From contig DDSZ01000032.1 in the NCBI GenBank assembly GCA_002344205.1, positions 156,732 to 220,731 on the forward strand: 64,000 bases of DNA, given 5' to 3'. Every line of letters starts with the position of its first letter. Positions within the stretch are counted from its first letter, which is position 1. This DNA comes from Opitutaceae bacterium UBA2377. GTDB taxonomy: Bacteria; Verrucomicrobiota; Verrucomicrobiia; Opitutales; Opitutaceae. Shown here piece by piece: positions 3,930 to 61,236 of this stretch. Under the pieces are notes generated by a model that saw nothing but the letters and a program-made list of their open reading frames with translations, had not been told where the DNA came from and ran no database searches. The position numbers and the translations under genes were made by a program.

Positions 3930-4097
3930 CGGATGCCGGAAACGTCAGATCAATGCGAAACCCGGGAGGATGAGCAGGATGTTCGGACGCATGGGGTGGG
4001 AGCATTACAAAGGCCGGGGTGCCGCGGGCCAAGAACGGAGATGCGTGGTGACAGGAATTCCCGTTGAGTCGGGGTGAGGCTCCGCCAGCATGAATCC
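3930..4097. promoter_or_regulatory. Divergent intergenic region between FGE and DUF4091 genes
   Basis: These 168 bases separate the start of the FGE gene (minus) from the chosen start of the DUF4091 gene (plus), so promoters for both must lie here or overlap the gene starts. No strong -35/-10 pair or operator palindrome stood out by eye. The alternative upstream ATG of the plus gene at 4074 lies inside this stretch. Confidence 0.4.
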
Positions 4098-6320
4098 ATG
4101 CCATCCCCGTTGCGCTCCGCCGGTTGGTTCCTACTGTCACTGGTCGCCGTGTGCGCCACCCCGCCCGAAAAATTTGCCCCGCGTGCGCTGTTGCGCGAAC
4201 CGGCCGCACCGCAGCTCGCTTCGCCGCTTGCGGGCGATGTCCTGCGCGATGCCGTGGTCACGGCTTCGCACCATGAGGAGGGCTACATCCCGCAGTTCGC
4301 CAACAACGGCAACCACGACGACAACATCCTGCACTGGGCGACGAAGCAGTGGCCGGCGTGGATCCGCTTCGACCTGCCGGAGCCGCGGCCGGTGGCGGAG
4401 ATCCATGTGTGGTTCATGGCCTGGGCGGGCCGCACCCACCATTACATGATCGAGGGTTCGGTGGACGGGCAAAACTGGAGCGTGCTGGTGGACCGGCGCG
4501 AAAGCGCCGTGCCCTCCACCTTGCGGGCTGAAAAATTTCTACTGCCGGAACCGGTCGAACTGCGGTCGCTGCGTTTGACGGTCACCGGCGCGACCAAGCC
4601 CGAGGATGGCCTGACCTTGCTCGAGGTGGATGCCTTTGCGCAGCCGGTGAAGCTCTCGCTCGGCGGTGCCGTGGCCGACATCGACCGCCGGCCGGCGGCG
4701 GCCGATTTGCCCGTGGCGGATGCTGTCCGGGAATGGTCGGGCACGGCCTGGCGCGGGGAACGCATCCACGGGCGGTTTGTCGTGTGGACGGACGCCCGGC
4801 GCGAGGGCCTGCGGGCGGAAGTGTCGCCCCTGCGTCGCGTAAATGGGGATGTAGGGCGGGATCGCCGTATCCCGCCATCGACTTCGAGTGATTCAAAGGC
4901 GGGGTTCGGAAACACCGTCCTACAGGCCAACATCCGCTTCGTGAAGCAGGTGTTGGCCGACGGCGATCTTGCCGGCGACCTCCTGGACGACGCAACGCGC
5001 ACACCGATGCCGGCCGGTTCATGGCGGGAGCTGTGGCTGACGGTCGAGCCGGGCCGTGCGACGGAGCCGGGCATTTACACGGGCACGATCACCGTGCGGG
5101 CCGATGACACCGCTCCGCTGGAATTTCCGCTCACCGTCGAGGTGCTGCCCGCGACCCTGCCGGCGCCGGCGGACTGGAAGTTTCACCTCGACCTGTGGCA
5201 GCACCCTTGGGCCATTGCGCGCTGGCATGATGTGGAGCCATGGAGCGAAGACCATTTCCGGCTGATGCGGCCTTACCTCACCGAACTCGCCAATGCGGGG
5301 CAGAAGATCATCACCGCGACCATCACCGACCGGCCCTGGGGCCGGCGCGACCACGACGATTACCGCTCGATGGTGGCGCGCGTGCGGCATCCGGACGGCT
5401 CGTGGAGCTTCGACTACACGATGTTCGACCGTTATGTGGAGCTGGCGATGGATTGCGGCATCACCGGGCAGATCAACTGCTACTCGCTGCTCACCTGGTC
5501 GGGCCGGCTTTATTATACCGACGCCGCGACCGGCGACGAACGGTTCATGCTCTGCGACACGACCGGGCCGGAGTTTGCCGAGTATTGGGCGCCGTTTTTG
5601 CGTGATTTCGAGCGCCATCTCGCGGCAAAGGGCTGGCTGGAGCGGGCCCGGCTCGCGGTGGACGAGGCACCGGCCCACATGATGCAGGCGATGACGGAGC
5701 TGGTGCGCGCCAACGCCCCGCGGCTGCGCATCAGTCTTGCGGGCAACCAGGCGCCCTCGCACTACACCGGGCTCGATCTGGCGGAGTTCAGCATCATCCT
5801 TGATCATGCGAGCGACGAGCTCCTGCGCGACATCGCCAGTCGCAAAGCCGAGGGCCGGATCACGACCTTTTACGTGTGCCTCGATCCGAAACGGCCCAAC
5901 ACCTTCGTCAGGAGCCCGCCGGCCGAGGCGGTGTGGATCGGCTATTACACGGCGGTAAACGGCTACGACGGCTTCCTGCGCTGGGCATGGACGACGTGGC
6001 CGGAGAATCCGCTGCGCGATTCCAGCTACTGGGGCCATCCCTACCTGCATTATCTGCCGGCCGGCGATGCCTTCCTCCTCTACCCCGGCCCGCGCAGTGC
6101 GGTGCGCTGGGAACTGCTGCGCGACGGGTTCGAGGAATGGGAAAAACTGCGCATTCTGCGCGAGGCGCACGGCGGCGAACTGCCGCCGGAGCTGGCGGCC
6201 CTGCTCGAACGCTTCCGCAACCCCAAGGAGCTCGGCGACGACGAGACCATCATCCGCGACGTCCAGGTCATGCGCGCAGCGGTCGAGGCGGCGGCGAAAG
6301 AGCAGGCCATCGGTCGTTAA
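4098..6320 (+). CDS. Secreted DUF4091 glycoside-hydrolase-like protein with F5/8 type C domain
   Basis: About 740 residues. The chosen start (4098) gives MPSPLRSAGWFLLSLVAVCA, a plausible signal peptide; ATG 4074 would add eight residues before it. Residues about 50-190 form a discoidin/F5-8C-like carbohydrate-binding domain (WPAWIRFDLPEPRPVAEIHV ... HYMIEGSVDGQNWSVLVDRR). The C-terminal half has the DUF4091 barrel-like region, with FLRWAWTTWPENPL and YLPAGDAFLLYPGP near residues 630-670. Such proteins are thought to be extracellular glycoside hydrolases of unknown specificity. Oddly, codons from about 4848 to 4926 consist of a palindromic repeat read in frame (VGRDRRIPP...), an insertion not expected in the family. 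Confidence 0.8.
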   Translation: MPSPLRSAGWFLLSLVAVCATPPEKFAPRALLREPAAPQLASPLAGDVLRDAVVTASHHEEGYIPQFANNGNHDDNILHWATKQWPAWIRFDLPEPRPVAEIHVWFMAWAGRTHHYMIEGSVDGQNWSVLVDRRESAVPSTLRAEKFLLPEPVELRSLRLTVTGATKPEDGLTLLEVDAFAQPVKLSLGGAVADIDRRPAAADLPVADAVREWSGTAWRGERIHGRFVVWTDARREGLRAEVSPLRRVNGDVGRDRRIPPSTSSDSKAGFGNTVLQANIRFVKQVLADGDLAGDLLDDATRTPMPAGSWRELWLTVEPGRATEPGIYTGTITVRADDTAPLEFPLTVEVLPATLPAPADWKFHLDLWQHPWAIARWHDVEPWSEDHFRLMRPYLTELANAGQKIITATITDRPWGRRDHDDYRSMVARVRHPDGSWSFDYTMFDRYVELAMDCGITGQINCYSLLTWSGRLYYTDAATGDERFMLCDTTGPEFAEYWAPFLRDFERHLAAKGWLERARLAVDEAPAHMMQAMTELVRANAPRLRISLAGNQAPSHYTGLDLAEFSIILDHASDELLRDIASRKAEGRITTFYVCLDPKRPNTFVRSPPAEAVWIGYYTAVNGYDGFLRWAWTTWPENPLRDSSYWGHPYLHYLPAGDAFLLYPGPRSAVRWELLRDGFEEWEKLRILREAHGGELPPELAALLERFRNPKELGDDETIIRDVQVMRAAVEAAAKEQAIGR
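4850..4926 (+). repeat. In-frame palindromic element (GTAGGG family) inside the DUF4091 gene
   Basis: The segment opens TGTAGG and closes CCTACA. Its left part contains a hairpin, GCGGGAT / ATCCCGC around CGCCGT, and its right part an imperfect hairpin, GGCGGGGTT / AACACCGTCC. The reading frame passes through without a stop and gives VGRDRRIPP at the left hairpin. Related copies lie at about 12698-12728 and 46448-46484 on the other strand, and the second also sits in a former reading frame in the same phase. Confidence 0.7.
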
Positions 6321-7338: not shown

Positions 7339-8057
7339 CCAAGCTTTCCGTAAACATTAACAAGATCGCGCTGCTCCGGAACTCGCGCGGGCGGAATTAC
7401 CCGGATGTGCGGGCAGTTTCGGAGCGGTGTCTGGAACTTGGTGCGCATGGGATCACGCTGCATCCGCGGCAGGACCAACGACACGCGCGCTACAGCGATG
7501 TAGAGGCATTGAACGGGCTGTGCGTGGAGCGCAGCGCCGAACTGAATGTCGAGGGCTATCCCTCGGAGGAGTTTCTGGCGGTGGTCATGCAAGCTCGGCC
7601 CGTGCAATGCACCCTCGTGCCGGATGCGCCGGGGCAGCTGACTTCCGATCATGGCTGGGATTTCGCCAAAGAGGCTGGATTCCTGCGCGAAGTGGTGCGC
7701 CGGTTGAAGGACTGCGGAATCCGGGTGAGCTTGTTTTCCGATTACGATTATCCCGGCATCGAGCAGGCCCGGGAAATCGGGGCCGACCGGGTTGAACTCT
7801 ATACGGAGCCCTACGCGGCGCATTTTGGTTCTGCGCGTGCCGATGAGATCTTCGAAGGATTTCGTATGGCGGCTAAGCGGGCGCAGGATGCCAGTCTGGG
7901 CGTCAATGCTGGGCATGATCTCAATCTAGAAAACCTAGCCCGTTTTCTGAGCATCCCCGACATCTTGGAGGTTTCAATCGGGCATGCCCTGGTGGTGGAA
8001 TCCATCGAGATGGGCTTGGATGCGGTGATCAGACGCTATTTGGAAATCGTAGCCTGA
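7335..8057 (+). CDS. pdxJ: Pyridoxine 5'-phosphate synthase
   Basis: A 240-residue PdxJ, which condenses 1-deoxyxylulose 5-phosphate with 3-amino-1-hydroxyacetone phosphate to form pyridoxine phosphate in the DXP-dependent vitamin B6 route. Family blocks are clear: LSVNINKIALLRNSRG at the N-terminus, GAHGITLHPRQDQRHA, ELNVEGYPS, CTLVPDAPGQLTSDHGWD, RVELYTEPYA and the C-terminal GVNAGHDLN and EVSIGHALV. Conserved His and Glu residues in LHPRQDQRHI-like, ELNVEG and IGHA blocks are kept. Length is normal. Translation is coupled to the VOC gene by ATGA. No pdxA is nearby. It is the last gene of the mazEF-VOC-pdxJ run. Confidence 0.96.
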   Translation: MTKLSVNINKIALLRNSRGRNYPDVRAVSERCLELGAHGITLHPRQDQRHARYSDVEALNGLCVERSAELNVEGYPSEEFLAVVMQARPVQCTLVPDAPGQLTSDHGWDFAKEAGFLREVVRRLKDCGIRVSLFSDYDYPGIEQAREIGADRVELYTEPYAAHFGSARADEIFEGFRMAAKRAQDASLGVNAGHDLNLENLARFLSIPDILEVSIGHALVVESIEMGLDAVIRRYLEIVA

Positions 8058-8179
8058 TATCGTCACCGCCTCCTTTTGGCGTAATGTGGCGGGTCGGGCG
8101 GGCGGGTCGTTGACCGGGCGCTCGGGGTGGCTTCGCTTGTGTCATAAACAACCCCGGCCGCCCTCAGGCGGCGATCCCC

Positions 8180-10069
8180 ATGTCCGACTCCCGCACACCA
8201 CCCCCACCCGATGACGGCCGGTCCGTCATCGACATGTCCAAGATGAGCGAGGGCCAGCGGGCCGCGCTTCAGGTCACCGAGGCCGCGCGCGAATCCCACG
8301 CCGATCCCAGTTTCGTGGCGCACCTGTTCATGGGCCGCTGGCGTCCCGCCAAGCTGCATCCGGTCACGGAAATCGCGGACGGGGAGCGCGAGCGGGCGGC
8401 CCGGTTTCTGGCCGACCTGGGTGTTTTTTTGCATCATGAGGTGGACGCCGAGGCGATCGACCGCAGCGGGGAAATCCCGGCGGCGGTCCGCGCCGGACTG
8501 GCCCGGCTCGGAGCCTACGGCATCAAGGTGCCGCGCGAATACGGCGGGCTCGGGTTTTCGCAGACGACCTACTGCCGCGCCTGCCAGCTCATTGCGAGCC
8601 ACTGCATGAACACCTTTGCGCATGTGTCGGTGCACCAGTCGGTGGGCGTGCCGCAGCCGCTGATGCTTTTCGGCACGCCGGAGCAAAAGCAAAAATTCCT
8701 GCCGCGCGTGGCGGGCGGCGAGCTGTCGGCCTTTGCCCTCACGGAAAGGGGCGTGGGTTCCGATCCCGCCCGGCTCACGACTGAGGCCGTCCCGGACGGG
8801 GACGATTTTGTGATCAACGGGGAAAAGCTCTGGTGCTCCAACGGCACGGAGGCCGGCCTGCTGATTGTGGCGGCCAAGACCCCGCCGAAGCCGGTCAACG
8901 GCAAGCCGCGCACGCAGATCACCACGTTTGTGGTCGAGGCAAACTCGCCGGGCATCGCGGTGCGGCACCGCTCCCAGTTCATGGGCCTGCGCGCGCTCTA
9001 CAACGGCGTGATCCGCTTCACCAATGTCCGCGTGCCGCGCGCCAACATCGTGGGCGGCGAGGGCCGCGGCCTGAAGGTGGCGCTCACCACGCTCAACGCC
9101 GGCCGGCTCTCCATCCCGGCCTCGTCGCTCGGCATGGCGAAAAAATCCCTCGTCATCGCGCGGGAGTGGGCGGCGGAACGCGTGCAGTGGGGCGTGCCCA
9201 TCGGGCAGCACGCCGCCATCGCCGAAAAAATCCGCCGCATCGCGGCCCATGCGTTTGCGATGGAGGCCATGCTCATCACCACCTCGCGCATCGTGGACCG
9301 CGACAAGCACGCCGACATCCGCCTCGAAGCCTCGATGTGCAAGCTCTGGGCGACCGAGAAGGCGTGGATGTGCCTCGACGATGTGATGCAGATCCGCGGC
9401 GGGCGCGGCTACGAGACGACGGAATCCCTGCGGGCGCGCGGCGAGGCGCCGCACCCGGTCGAGCGCATGATGCGCGACAACCGGGTGACGACCATCTTCG
9501 AGGGTTCCTCGGAGATCATGCGGCTCTTCATCATGCGCGAAGCGCTGGATCCGCACCTGAAGATTGCCGGCATCGCGCTCAACTCCGAGCGGCTGTGGGG
9601 CGAGCGCCTGCGCAGCGCGCTGCAGGCGGCGGGTTTTTATGCGGCTTGGTATCCGCGGCTCTGGCTGCCCTTCGGGGCGGGCGTGCCGGCCGACATCCAC
9701 CCGCGGCTGGCCGCGCACCTGCGCACCGTGGCGCGGCTCTCCCGCCGCATGGCGCGCACGCTGTTTCACCAGATGGTGAAGTTCGGCCCGAAGCTGGAGC
9801 GCCGGCAAATTTTGCTCGGCCGCATTGCCGACATCGGCAGCGACCTCTTCGCCCTCGCGGCGACCTGTGTGTATGCGCAGAAACTGCTCAACGAAGGCGA
9901 CTCGGCGGACAAGGTGCTGGCGTTGACAGATGATTTTGCGGTGCAGGCGCTGGCCCGGATTGGGACGAATTTTCAGGGAGTCGCGCACAACTCGGATGAG
10001 TCAGGCTACGCCCTGGCCCAGCAGGTGGTGGCCGGCGAGCATACCTGGATCGAGCAGGGGATTTTGTAG
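8180..10069 (+). CDS. Acyl-CoA dehydrogenase family protein
   Basis: A 629-residue FAD-dependent acyl-CoA dehydrogenase, longer than the roughly 380-residue short-chain enzymes and similar to the long two-part forms (about 580-640 residues). The N-terminal helical domain holds a GIKVPREYGGLGFSQTTY block; the middle domain has ALTERGVGSDPARL and INGEKLWCSNGTEA; the C-terminal domain has QIRGGRGYETTESLR and RMMRDNRVTTIFEGSSEIMRLFI, which supplies the candidate catalytic Glu and nucleotide contacts. A further C-terminal helical extension of about 170 residues follows. It stands alone with a 122-base upstream gap and no ETF genes nearby. Acyl substrate unknown. Confidence 0.9.
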   Translation: MSDSRTPPPPDDGRSVIDMSKMSEGQRAALQVTEAARESHADPSFVAHLFMGRWRPAKLHPVTEIADGERERAARFLADLGVFLHHEVDAEAIDRSGEIPAAVRAGLARLGAYGIKVPREYGGLGFSQTTYCRACQLIASHCMNTFAHVSVHQSVGVPQPLMLFGTPEQKQKFLPRVAGGELSAFALTERGVGSDPARLTTEAVPDGDDFVINGEKLWCSNGTEAGLLIVAAKTPPKPVNGKPRTQITTFVVEANSPGIAVRHRSQFMGLRALYNGVIRFTNVRVPRANIVGGEGRGLKVALTTLNAGRLSIPASSLGMAKKSLVIAREWAAERVQWGVPIGQHAAIAEKIRRIAAHAFAMEAMLITTSRIVDRDKHADIRLEASMCKLWATEKAWMCLDDVMQIRGGRGYETTESLRARGEAPHPVERMMRDNRVTTIFEGSSEIMRLFIMREALDPHLKIAGIALNSERLWGERLRSALQAAGFYAAWYPRLWLPFGAGVPADIHPRLAAHLRTVARLSRRMARTLFHQMVKFGPKLERRQILLGRIADIGSDLFALAATCVYAQKLLNEGDSADKVLALTDDFAVQALARIGTNFQGVAHNSDESGYALAQQVVAGEHTWIEQGIL

Positions 10070-12613: not shown

Positions 12614-12737
12614 GTTAGAGCGGCTTAAGAAATATCATGGTCGCGGTCCGCTCGGAGAGCGGACCCTGCCGGCGCTACCGCGCCAAAATTGGAAAGCAAC
12701 GGGCGGGATCGGCGATCCCGCCCTACAAGCCAAAGGT
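12614..12737. repeat. Compound palindromic repeat (GTTAGAGCGG block plus two hairpins)
   Basis: Between the solute-binding protein gene and the dioxygenase gene (12565-12748) nothing codes. The stretch begins GTTAGAGCGGCTTAAG, then has hairpin GGTCCGCTC/GAGCGGACC (12645-12665), a small GGCGC/GCGCC hairpin, and a perfect hairpin GGGCGGGATC-GGC-GATCCCGCCC followed by TACA. About 45 bases match 51116-51162 with two or three changes, and the last hairpin matches the inserts at 4850 and 46450. It could also serve as a terminator for one or both flanking converging genes. Confidence 0.75.
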
Positions 12738-46033: not shown

Positions 46034-46526
46034 TGTGCTTTATCCTTTCGAGCGTGAGGACAGGCTCTTTTTTTGATATTCCTGCTCTTAGGACCAACCG
46101 ACCGAGGTCGGTGCAAAGCTCATGGAGCTTGTGCGAAGGTTCCTCCCCAAGAGAGGGGTTCACGGATGTGAACTCGGGGAACCGTGCAAAATGCAGTTCA
46201 CTAGTCAAGGAGATACTCCCTGCCGAGTCGGGGTAAATCAGGTCGAAGACACCTTGCGGGTATTTGACGACGAGGGTATCCATGACCTCCAGACAATCGC
46301 CCTAGTAAAGGTAGAGGCCGCGGGTGTCGTCGCGGTAGGCGAGCTTGGACGGCTGAAGCACGTCCGGCCCCTCGGCGACGATGGCGTCCTCGGGGCGGAA
46401 CTGCGCGTCGTAGTCAGGGTAAACGGCAGGCGCAGATTTGGCGGGGACAGGCGGGGTTCGGCGACCCCGCCCTACAGCAGGACGAGGGTGCGACTTCGTC
46501 GCAGGCTTGGGCTTCTTGGGCGGCAC
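46020..46526 (-). pseudogene. DNA methyltransferase N-terminal remnant with in-frame TAG and diverged tail
   Basis: Read on the minus strand from 46526, the frame gives ...KLAYRDDTRGLYLY, TAG at 46302-46304, then GDCLEVMDTLVVKYPQGVFD followed by LIYPD. GDCLEVM and DLIY.DPP are the motifs around the catalytic DPPY/F site of N4/N6 DNA methyltransferases; here the DPPF is replaced by DS and the rest (AGSISLTSELHFARF...) shows no methyltransferase similarity. An ATG at 46283 gives an 87-residue frame that overlaps the AIPR-like start by 14 bases, so it might be translated. The frame also contains an in-phase GTAGGG-type palindrome (about 46448-46484). Confidence 0.55.
46448..46484 (-). repeat. 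GTAGGG-family palindrome in the methyltransferase remnant
   Basis: On the minus strand the copy reads CTGTAGGGCGGGGTCGCC followed by GAACCCCGCCTG. Its hairpin GCGGGGT/ACCCCGC matches the copies at 4850-4876 and 12698-12728. Codons give VGRGRRTPP, the same phase as VGRDRRIPP in the DUF4091 gene. Confidence 0.7.
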
Positions 46527-46733
46527 GCTTGGATCGGATCGATCCGCCGGCAGGATTGATCAAGGCCGAAGTCGGGAGGGGGCGACCGGTCGCACCTTCC
46601 GTCCGGCAAGGGGCTACTCCCTTCGGATGAATTGCCGCTCCGCGGGGCGGCTTTGGGCTGAAACATTTTGCCAGCGGGCGGGGCCGGCCAAGTTTTATGA
46701 CAAAACGACCCCAACTCCCAACCCCGGAGCCCC

Positions 46734-61143: not shown

Positions 61144-61236
61144 CAAAGAAGTGACCGTAAGGTAGGGCCCGACCTCCGGGCGGGCCGCTCGGAGATCGGC
61201 CCCTACCCAGCGCACGTCTGTCGTCACTTCTATTGG
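61144..61236. repeat. Nested palindrome with GTAGGG core between two minus-strand genes
   Basis: The outer arms are CCAAAGAAGTGAC (61143-61155) and GTCACTTCTATTGG (61223-61236). Inside are GGTAGGG (61161-61167) and CCCTACC (61201-61207), and inside those the GGCCCG/CGGGCC and GCCG-CGGC hairpin parts. The GTAGGG-plus-hairpin plan is that of the copies at 4850, 12698 and 46450. It fills most of the 124-base gap. Confidence 0.7.

What the first reader, a model, noticed from the sequence alone, without database searches (positions are those of the whole stretch)
4850..4926. Palindromic element inserted in frame in a secreted enzyme gene, same phase as a second genic copy
The DUF4091 gene contains a palindromic segment (GTAGGG...CCTACA) read as VGRDRRIPP. 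A second copy inside the methyltransferase remnant at about 46448-46484 is read in the same phase as VGRGRRTPP, with substitutions but no frameshift. Intergenic copies also occur (12698-12728, and a variant at 61144-61236). In-frame palindromes inserted in proteins are known from Rickettsia palindromic elements (established); whether a similar class exists in this lineage is inference.
Basis: partly seen in the sequence, partly recalled or inferred. Interest (0 to 1): 0.72.

Follow-up and report, generated by a model that had tools for sequence, protein, structure and literature searches.

The report
Palindromic mobile repeat inside an enzyme
A short, inverted-repeat piece of probably mobile bacterial DNA sits in frame inside a sugar-cutting enzyme gene, adding a 25-residue loop that the protein seems to tolerate; elements of this kind were already described in a related bacterium, but here the same protein loop may have been hit repeatedly in different lineages.

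Summary
Window 4850-4925 is an inverted pair of GTAG-tagged palindromes (26 nt, 21-nt spacer, 26 nt), read in frame as VGRDRRIPPSTSSDSKAGFGNTVLQ in a GH123 (DUF4091) gene: a REPIN, i.e. a head-to-head dimer of GTAG-type REP. The strict REP pattern has 207 matches in 15 of 57 genomes (reversed control 0), and the same REP flanks RAYT transposase genes in two relatives. Of nine genome orthologues compared, G000 and G003 have the insert and seven lack it. The model gives it very low confidence, as expected of a disordered loop. The 'same phase' argument fails: the motif's TAG closes one frame per strand, and genic copies use both open frames. Most copies lie outside genes (9 of 135 in frame in genes, against 2001 of 3610 random positions). 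Intragenic GTAG REPs in Opitutus terrae were published in 2013 (PMC3733652), so this is a new member of a known kind. Possibly new: the GH123 loop needs at least 11 gains or losses on a 50-row protein tree, and a CusA loop carries several different palindromes in five genera.

The parts
4074..6320 (+). GH123-family gene (DUF4091; F5/8C + GH123 N-terminal + GH123 catalytic), 748 aa, host of the insert
   Evidence: PF13320 E=2.7e-93, PF22680, PF00754; matches BvGH123 5l7v/5l7u by sequence and fold
4850..4925 (.). REPIN: head-to-head pair of GTAG REPs, in frame, coding VGRDRRIPPSTSSDSKAGFGNTVLQ
4851..4876 (+). left REP, GTAGGGCGGGATCGCCGTATCCCGCC
   Evidence: G000:C4:161582-161607
4877..4897 (.). 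21-nt spacer between the two REPs
4898..4923 (-). right REP, decayed (GTAGGACGGTGTTTCCGAACCCCGCC); intact at the same site in G003
12702..12726 (-). single REP, no coding flank detected
46450..46475 (-). single REP in the inferred N-terminal tail of a broken DNA methyltransferase, read VGRGRRTPP
46227..46526 (-). approximate extent of the methyltransferase remnant (inferred GTG start near 46526; in-frame TAG near 46302; homology searched and found to 46227)
   Evidence: start estimated by eye
61162..61186 (+). second GTAG REP family, GTAGGGCCCGACCTCCGGGCGGGCC, with a partial inverted partner up to about 61207

Best explanation
The 76-bp segment is a REPIN, two GTAG-tagged REPs in inverted orientation, that was inserted into a loop of the GH123 N-terminal beta-sandwich, in G000 and G003 at the same place. 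REPs of this family are probably mobilised in trans by an HUH (Y1) transposase of the RAYT type; this was not tested by experiment, and no RAYT flanked by this REP was found in the own genome. Copies lie mostly outside genes. Inside genes a copy survives only if it falls in one of the open frames, keeps the reading frame and lies in a part of the protein that tolerates extra residues. Shown: the repeat family, its copies, absence in seven of nine orthologues, same-family REPs beside RAYT genes in two relatives, very low model confidence exactly at the insert. Inferred: RAYT catalysis, disorder and neutrality of the inserted peptide.
For: GTAG tag + GC palindrome in dispersed copies, many as head-to-head pairs. 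Insert in G000 and G003, absent in the seven other orthologues compared. RAYT-like HUH genes with same-family REPs on both sides: G035:C12, where the upstream copy bears GGAG instead of GTAG, and G003:C47, where the RAYT is broken. Of 17 RAYT-like loci that I inspected (16 of the 25 loci returned, plus L182), 11 have GTAG/GGAG hairpins on both sides within 300 bp, 3 on one side, 3 on neither (positions, sorted by eye, no shuffle control). Insert residues 233-257 of the modelled chain contain the pLDDT<50 stretch 233-253, between strands 226-228 and 256-268; mean pLDDT 89.7. The gene is under purifying selection with the insert in both: G000 vs G003 dN 0.063, dS 0.498. Depletion inside genes: 9 of 135 vs 2001 of 3610. 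Published precedent in O. terrae.
Against: In G000 the two long Y1 proteins and the C47 RAYT-like gene have no REP of this family near them, and G027 has 12 REP matches but no Y1 match. The loop is only 19 aa longer than in G001-type proteins (51 vs 32) although the element is 25 codons, so about 6 codons were replaced or lost. No target-site duplication could be tested. The insert is somewhat less diverged between G000 and G003 than the rest (7 of 75 vs 294 of 2130 nt; third positions: 39 of 710 windows as low, all positions: 248 of 710), so some constraint on it is not excluded.
Confidence: 0.9

Rival explanations
1. On how the GH123 loop came to be so variable: it is a recurrent landing site. 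REPINs, and apparently another repeat, inserted there several times independently, because the site is both tolerant and preferred as a target.
For: On a 50-row tree built without the loop, the insert label needs at least 11 changes (starred branches force 11; bootstrap range 11-12), and the three rows with another repeat-like peptide (QVSDLRRAS...RAG.RPALP) need 3. Insert-free sisters P0033, P0042 and P0009 keep ancestral-type loops (DAAGHEL, GHALPA, GRTLPA) that a plain deletion would not restore. For P0033/P0024, P0042/P0030 and P0040/P0029 the 50 residues on each side of the insert-free row still match the sister best. Flanks differ in P0013 and P0023. L261 carries a near-perfect REPIN in a protein 61% identical to the query. 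One CusA loop shows palindromic inserts of differing sequence in G035, G001, G034, G027 and G032.
Against: Changes may be gains or losses, and the label is clustered on the tree (11 changes against a shuffled mean of 16.3; 3 of 500 shuffles as low). Every recognisable GH123 insert uses the same phase (VGR left, AGFGDPALQ-like right), and many share an upstream RRV-like motif that is not REP-coded, which is unexpected for independent events unless insertion is nearly site-specific. In the other pairs compared (query/P0009, query/P0005, P0039/P0026, P0013/P0019) the nearest flank is often another row, so mixing of alleles is not excluded. The other repeat was seen as protein only.
Confidence: 0.45
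2. On the same question: one old insertion in the GH123 loop, shuffled among lineages by short recombination tracts and lost in others.
For: Constant phase and a shared RRV-like flank in most insert rows. In G000 vs G003 the 7 codons before the insert are identical, and the window from there is low in third-position changes (25 of 707 windows as low). Mixed flank affinities in several pairs.
Against: No foreign tract in the 50 residues beside the loop in the insert-free rows P0033, P0042 and P0040. P0013 and P0023 have other flanks. Three rows hold a different repeat-like peptide at the same place. A near-perfect REPIN in L261 looks younger than the protein divergence.
Confidence: 0.4
3. The inserted peptide has been taken up for a function (an adaptive protein-coding palindrome).
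For: The phase is constant in GH123 and the frame is kept after decay of either half.
Against: Very low model confidence at the insert; absent in close homologues (P0005 84%, P0008 82% identity); the spacer peptide varies; inserts occur in unrelated proteins.
Confidence: 0.08
4. A chance GC-rich palindrome in a GC-rich gene.
For: GC-rich near-matches are common: the 3-mismatch hits are mostly noise.
Against: 207 strict matches in 15 genomes with a reversed-pattern control of 0; presence/absence between orthologues.
Confidence: 0.01

Closest known systems
GTAG-tagged REPs and their dimers, Di Nocera et al. 2013 (PMC3733652), including those of Opitutus terrae
   Same: GTAG end, GC palindrome, head-to-head dimers with short spacers, intragenic copies (dimers and groups coding 20-30 aa), RAYT genes flanked by REPs, the TAG of the tag ending flanking ORFs
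   Different: Different species. I could not see the O. terrae consensus (figure and supplements not held), so identity with a numbered GTAG family is untested
REPINs, Bertels and Rainey 2011 (PMC3116915; passages only)
   Same: Inverted REP doublets linked to RAYTs
   Different: The passages seen describe the REP words as predominantly extragenic; here some copies lie in frame in genes
Rickettsia palindromic elements (RPE), as described in PMC3733652 and recalled
   Same: Palindromes inserted in frame in unrelated proteins
   Different: PMC3733652 counts the R. conorii intragenic repeats (RPE-4, RPE-6) under the CGTC class, for which it found no transposase partner; no sequence comparison was made here

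Membership tests
GTAG REP / REPIN | unpaired GTAG at one end of a palindromic stem of 5-13 bp | tested here: met
   GTAG + stem of 8-9 bp in the copies listed
GTAG REP / REPIN | dispersed repeat family | tested here: met
   207 strict matches (a few overlapping on both strands) in 15 of 57 genomes, reversed control 0
GTAG REP / REPIN | inverted pairs with short spacer | tested here: met
   window 4850-4925; G000:C17:6517-6591; pairs in G003, G019, G020, G027
GTAG REP / REPIN | same-family REPs flank a RAYT gene | tested here: met
   met in relatives G035:C12 and G003:C47; not found in the own genome
GTAG REP / REPIN | mobilised by RAYT | not testable with these tools
   needs biochemistry
GTAG REP / REPIN | predominantly extragenic | tested here: met
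   9 of 135 classified elements in frame in genes (a lower bound) vs 2001 of 3610 random positions
Rickettsia palindromic element | in-frame insertion in protein genes | tested here: met
Rickettsia palindromic element | CGTC tag, as PMC3733652 classes RPE-4 and RPE-6 | tested here: not met
   tag here is GTAG
Rickettsia palindromic element | sequence kinship with RPE families | not tested
   no RPE sequence was fetched

The most novel reading that the evidence does not exclude
Certain protein loops (the GH123 N-domain hairpin, a CusA/CzcA loop) are repeated landing sites for several unrelated RAYT-linked REP families, so that REPINs recurrently rebuild the same loops across a bacterial family, in GH123 at one position and phase. 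That would imply target-site choice by the transposase as well as tolerance by the protein.
Probability: 0.35. Interest if true: 0.65.

Novelty: new member of a known kind. Interest (0 to 1): 0.42.

Why it matters
It extends intragenic REPINs from O. terrae to several further genera, with orthologues that lack the insert, and ties this REP family to specific RAYT genes. If the recurrence in one loop is real, orthologue sets such as GH123 and CusA give natural replicates for asking where RAYT elements insert and what proteins tolerate.

Tried and rejected
Rejected: phase as evidence of function (two frames open; both used). Rejected: the own genome's two ~320-aa Y1 proteins as the RAYT of this REP (none of its REPs near them). 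Not convincing either way: a recombination tract around the G000/G003 insert (low, not extreme).

Limits of the counts. My codon model undercounts genic copies: it missed the G003 GH123 copy and the methyltransferase tails in G000 and G003, so 9 of 135 is a lower bound; the random control did not suffer from half-recognised elements. The 141 elements come from 12 of the 15 genomes with matches; G022, G030 and G031 were left out, G020 came only from the regions fetched (47 elements; 88 matches in all), G000 gave 8; 6 elements were dropped at contig edges. Of the 9 in-frame calls, two (G007) and the G020 one have no or only sub-threshold NCBIfam matches. In one search a regular expression failed on 10 of 29 loci; of the 19 read, L258 and L261 bear the insert. 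The CusA comparison used the 17 best of 29 listed matches. 120 of 310 GH123 homologues were listed and examined (itself limited to 7997 candidates); one search used 50 rows (fragments and distant insert-free rows left out) with labels set by hand, half inserts P0036 and P0037 and degenerate P0024 counted as inserts, P0022, P0040, P0041 and P0044 as none.

Mistakes replaced: the first orthologue alignment took wrong-strand frames and was replaced; a peptide scan mixed gapped rows and was redone; one search labelled a few rows wrongly by regex.

Paper searches: in an open-licence library only; none listed a census of intragenic repeats in Opitutaceae other than PMC3733652's treatment of O. terrae.

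Full report
What is there. Window 4850-4925 reads TGTAGGGCGGGATCGCCGTATCCCGCC, a 21-nt spacer, then GGCGGGGTTCGGAAACACCGTCCTACA. Each half is a GTAG tag followed by a GC palindrome, and the two halves face each other. As single-stranded DNA it folds better than 198 of 200 shuffles (z -3.17). It lies in the open frame 4074-6320, whose product has F5/8C and GH123 domains and matches BvGH123 by sequence and fold.

It is a repeat family. GTAGGGCGGGRTC...CCCGCC has 9 matches in the own genome and 207 in 15 of 57 genomes; the reversed pattern has 0 (sum made by me from its table; a few matches overlap on both strands of one palindrome). All 15 genomes bear the family code f1 of the window's genome. 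Many matches are inverted pairs. This is the architecture of a REPIN.

Who may move it. RAYT-like HUH genes are flanked by the same REP in two relatives. In G035:C12 the REPs are at L131 2001-2114 (a pair) and 2603-2628 (tag GGAG); the HUH frame is 2131-2769, and its homologous part ends just before the second REP. In G003:C47 the RAYT match (contig 7795-8225, in two frames, one with a TGA) sits between two REP pairs (L182 1461-1525 and 2008-2073). Of 17 RAYT-like loci inspected (16 of the 25 returned, plus L182), 11 have GTAG or GGAG hairpins on both sides within 300 bp, 3 on one side and 3 on neither, sorted by eye without a shuffle control. In the own genome the C47 RAYT-like gene is flanked by another hairpin, GTAGGGGCGGTTATCC and a variant. 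A second REP family, GTAGGGCCCGACCTCCGGGCGGGCC, has 15 copies in the own genome; in G003:C73 copies at 5317-5341 and 5775-5799 enclose a RAYT match at 5394-5759. That RAYTs move REPs is the accepted hypothesis (PMC3733652, PMC3116915), not shown here.

The insert and its empty sites. Of nine orthologous loci compared, G000 and G003 have the insert; G001, G025, G004, G019, G002, G015 and G006 do not (a tenth row, L077, did not align usefully). In G003 the right half is intact and the left tag is GCAG; in G000 the left is intact and the right has decayed, without indels. The gene is under purifying selection in this pair (dN 0.063, dS 0.498). The insert differs at 7 of 75 nt, the rest at 294 of 2130. 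The AlphaFold model (58-sequence alignment, mean pLDDT 89.7) gives pLDDT below 50 for residues 233-253, within the REPIN-coded 233-257, between strands 226-228 and 256-268. I take this as a disordered loop; low confidence alone does not prove it.

Phase. One frame per strand is closed by the TAG of GTAG. Genic copies use both open left-end readings. VGR-type: GH123 in G000 and G003, an RlmI-like methyltransferase in G005, and the inferred methyltransferase tails in G000 and G003. CRAG-type: Mfd in G019, an OGG-like glycosylase in G028, CusA in G035, and a membrane protein in G020 without an NCBIfam match. Copies in G001 (CusA) and G007 (two, with weak family matches) are read from the other side. 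Of 14 elements with coding flanks on one strand, 9 were in frame and open, 2 in frame with a stop, 3 shifted.

Where copies lie. Of 135 elements that could be classified, 9 are in frame inside genes, against 2001 of 3610 random positions with a 75-bp gap in the same loci (Fisher p about 1e-32). The 9 is a lower bound because the codon model missed three copies that homology shows or suggests to be genic.

Recurrence in one loop. In the 120 GH123 homologues listed (of 310 found), the REP-peptide patterns scanned occur only in this loop, apart from one chance VGRD in P0073, and only in the VGR / AGFGDPALQ phase; the three other readings scanned gave 0. On a 50-row tree without the loop, the insert label needs at least 11 changes and the other repeat-like peptide 3 (LG+G4, one search); these may be gains or losses, and the label is clustered (shuffled mean 16.3, 3 of 500 as low). 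Sisters P0033/P0024 (100/99) and P0042/P0030 (100/100) differ in the insert, yet the 50 residues beside the loop in the insert-free row match the sister best; other pairs are mixed. L261, 61% identical to the query, has a near-perfect REPIN with another spacer; L258 has one decayed half. Against independence: constant phase and a shared RRV-like flank in many rows. In CusA, of 17 loops compared (the best 17 of 29 matches), G035 and G001 carry this REP, G034, G027 and G032 carry other palindromes by eye, and the other 12 none that I recognised, though some of these loops are long.

Comparison with the literature. PMC3733652 (abstract, sections 5, 15, 16 and part 1 of 17 read; [quoted passage not shown] It also notes that insertions may be neutral in linkers or loops. 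So the kind, the wider lineage and even a same-site observation have precedent. PMC3116915 was seen in passages only; the other papers only as listings. That the window's genome belongs to Opitutaceae follows from record titles of near relatives (for example L257, 89% identity); the genome itself is unnamed, and that O. terrae belongs to Opitutaceae is recalled (the paper says Verrucomicrobia).

Verdict. A real, in-frame REPIN in a loop that seems to tolerate it: new member of a known kind, with an open and testable question about repeated insertion in the same loops.

Noticed in passing
L208, L214, L211, L223, L221 (CusA/CzcA loop): The same loop of a CusA/CzcA efflux pump carries palindromic inserts of four different sequences, by eye, in five genera (5 of 17 loops compared).
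   Followed up: partly
P0007, P0010, P0012: A different repeat-like peptide, QVSDLRRAS...RAG.RPALP, at the same GH123 loop; DNA not seen.
   Followed up: partly
61162-61207: A second GTAG REP family (GTAGGGCCCGACCTCCGGGCGGGCC), 15 copies in the own genome, enclosing a RAYT match in G003:C73.
   Followed up: partly
L357 (G000:C47): The own genome's RAYT-like gene is flanked by a third hairpin type, GTAGGGGCGGTTATCC and a variant.
   Followed up: no
46526-46560 and L203-L206: GGATCGATCCGATC is conserved just upstream of the inferred start of this DNA methyltransferase in G000, G003, G005 and G027 (by eye); possibly a site of self-regulation.
   Followed up: no
46227-46526: The methyltransferase is broken in the window (in-frame TAG, no DPPY-like continuation after VFDLIYPD) but has a 420-aa open frame in G003.
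   Followed up: partly
L106, L124: Two of the in-frame REPINs lie in DNA repair genes, Mfd and an OGG-like glycosylase, in line with the many repair genes reported in PMC3733652.
   Followed up: no
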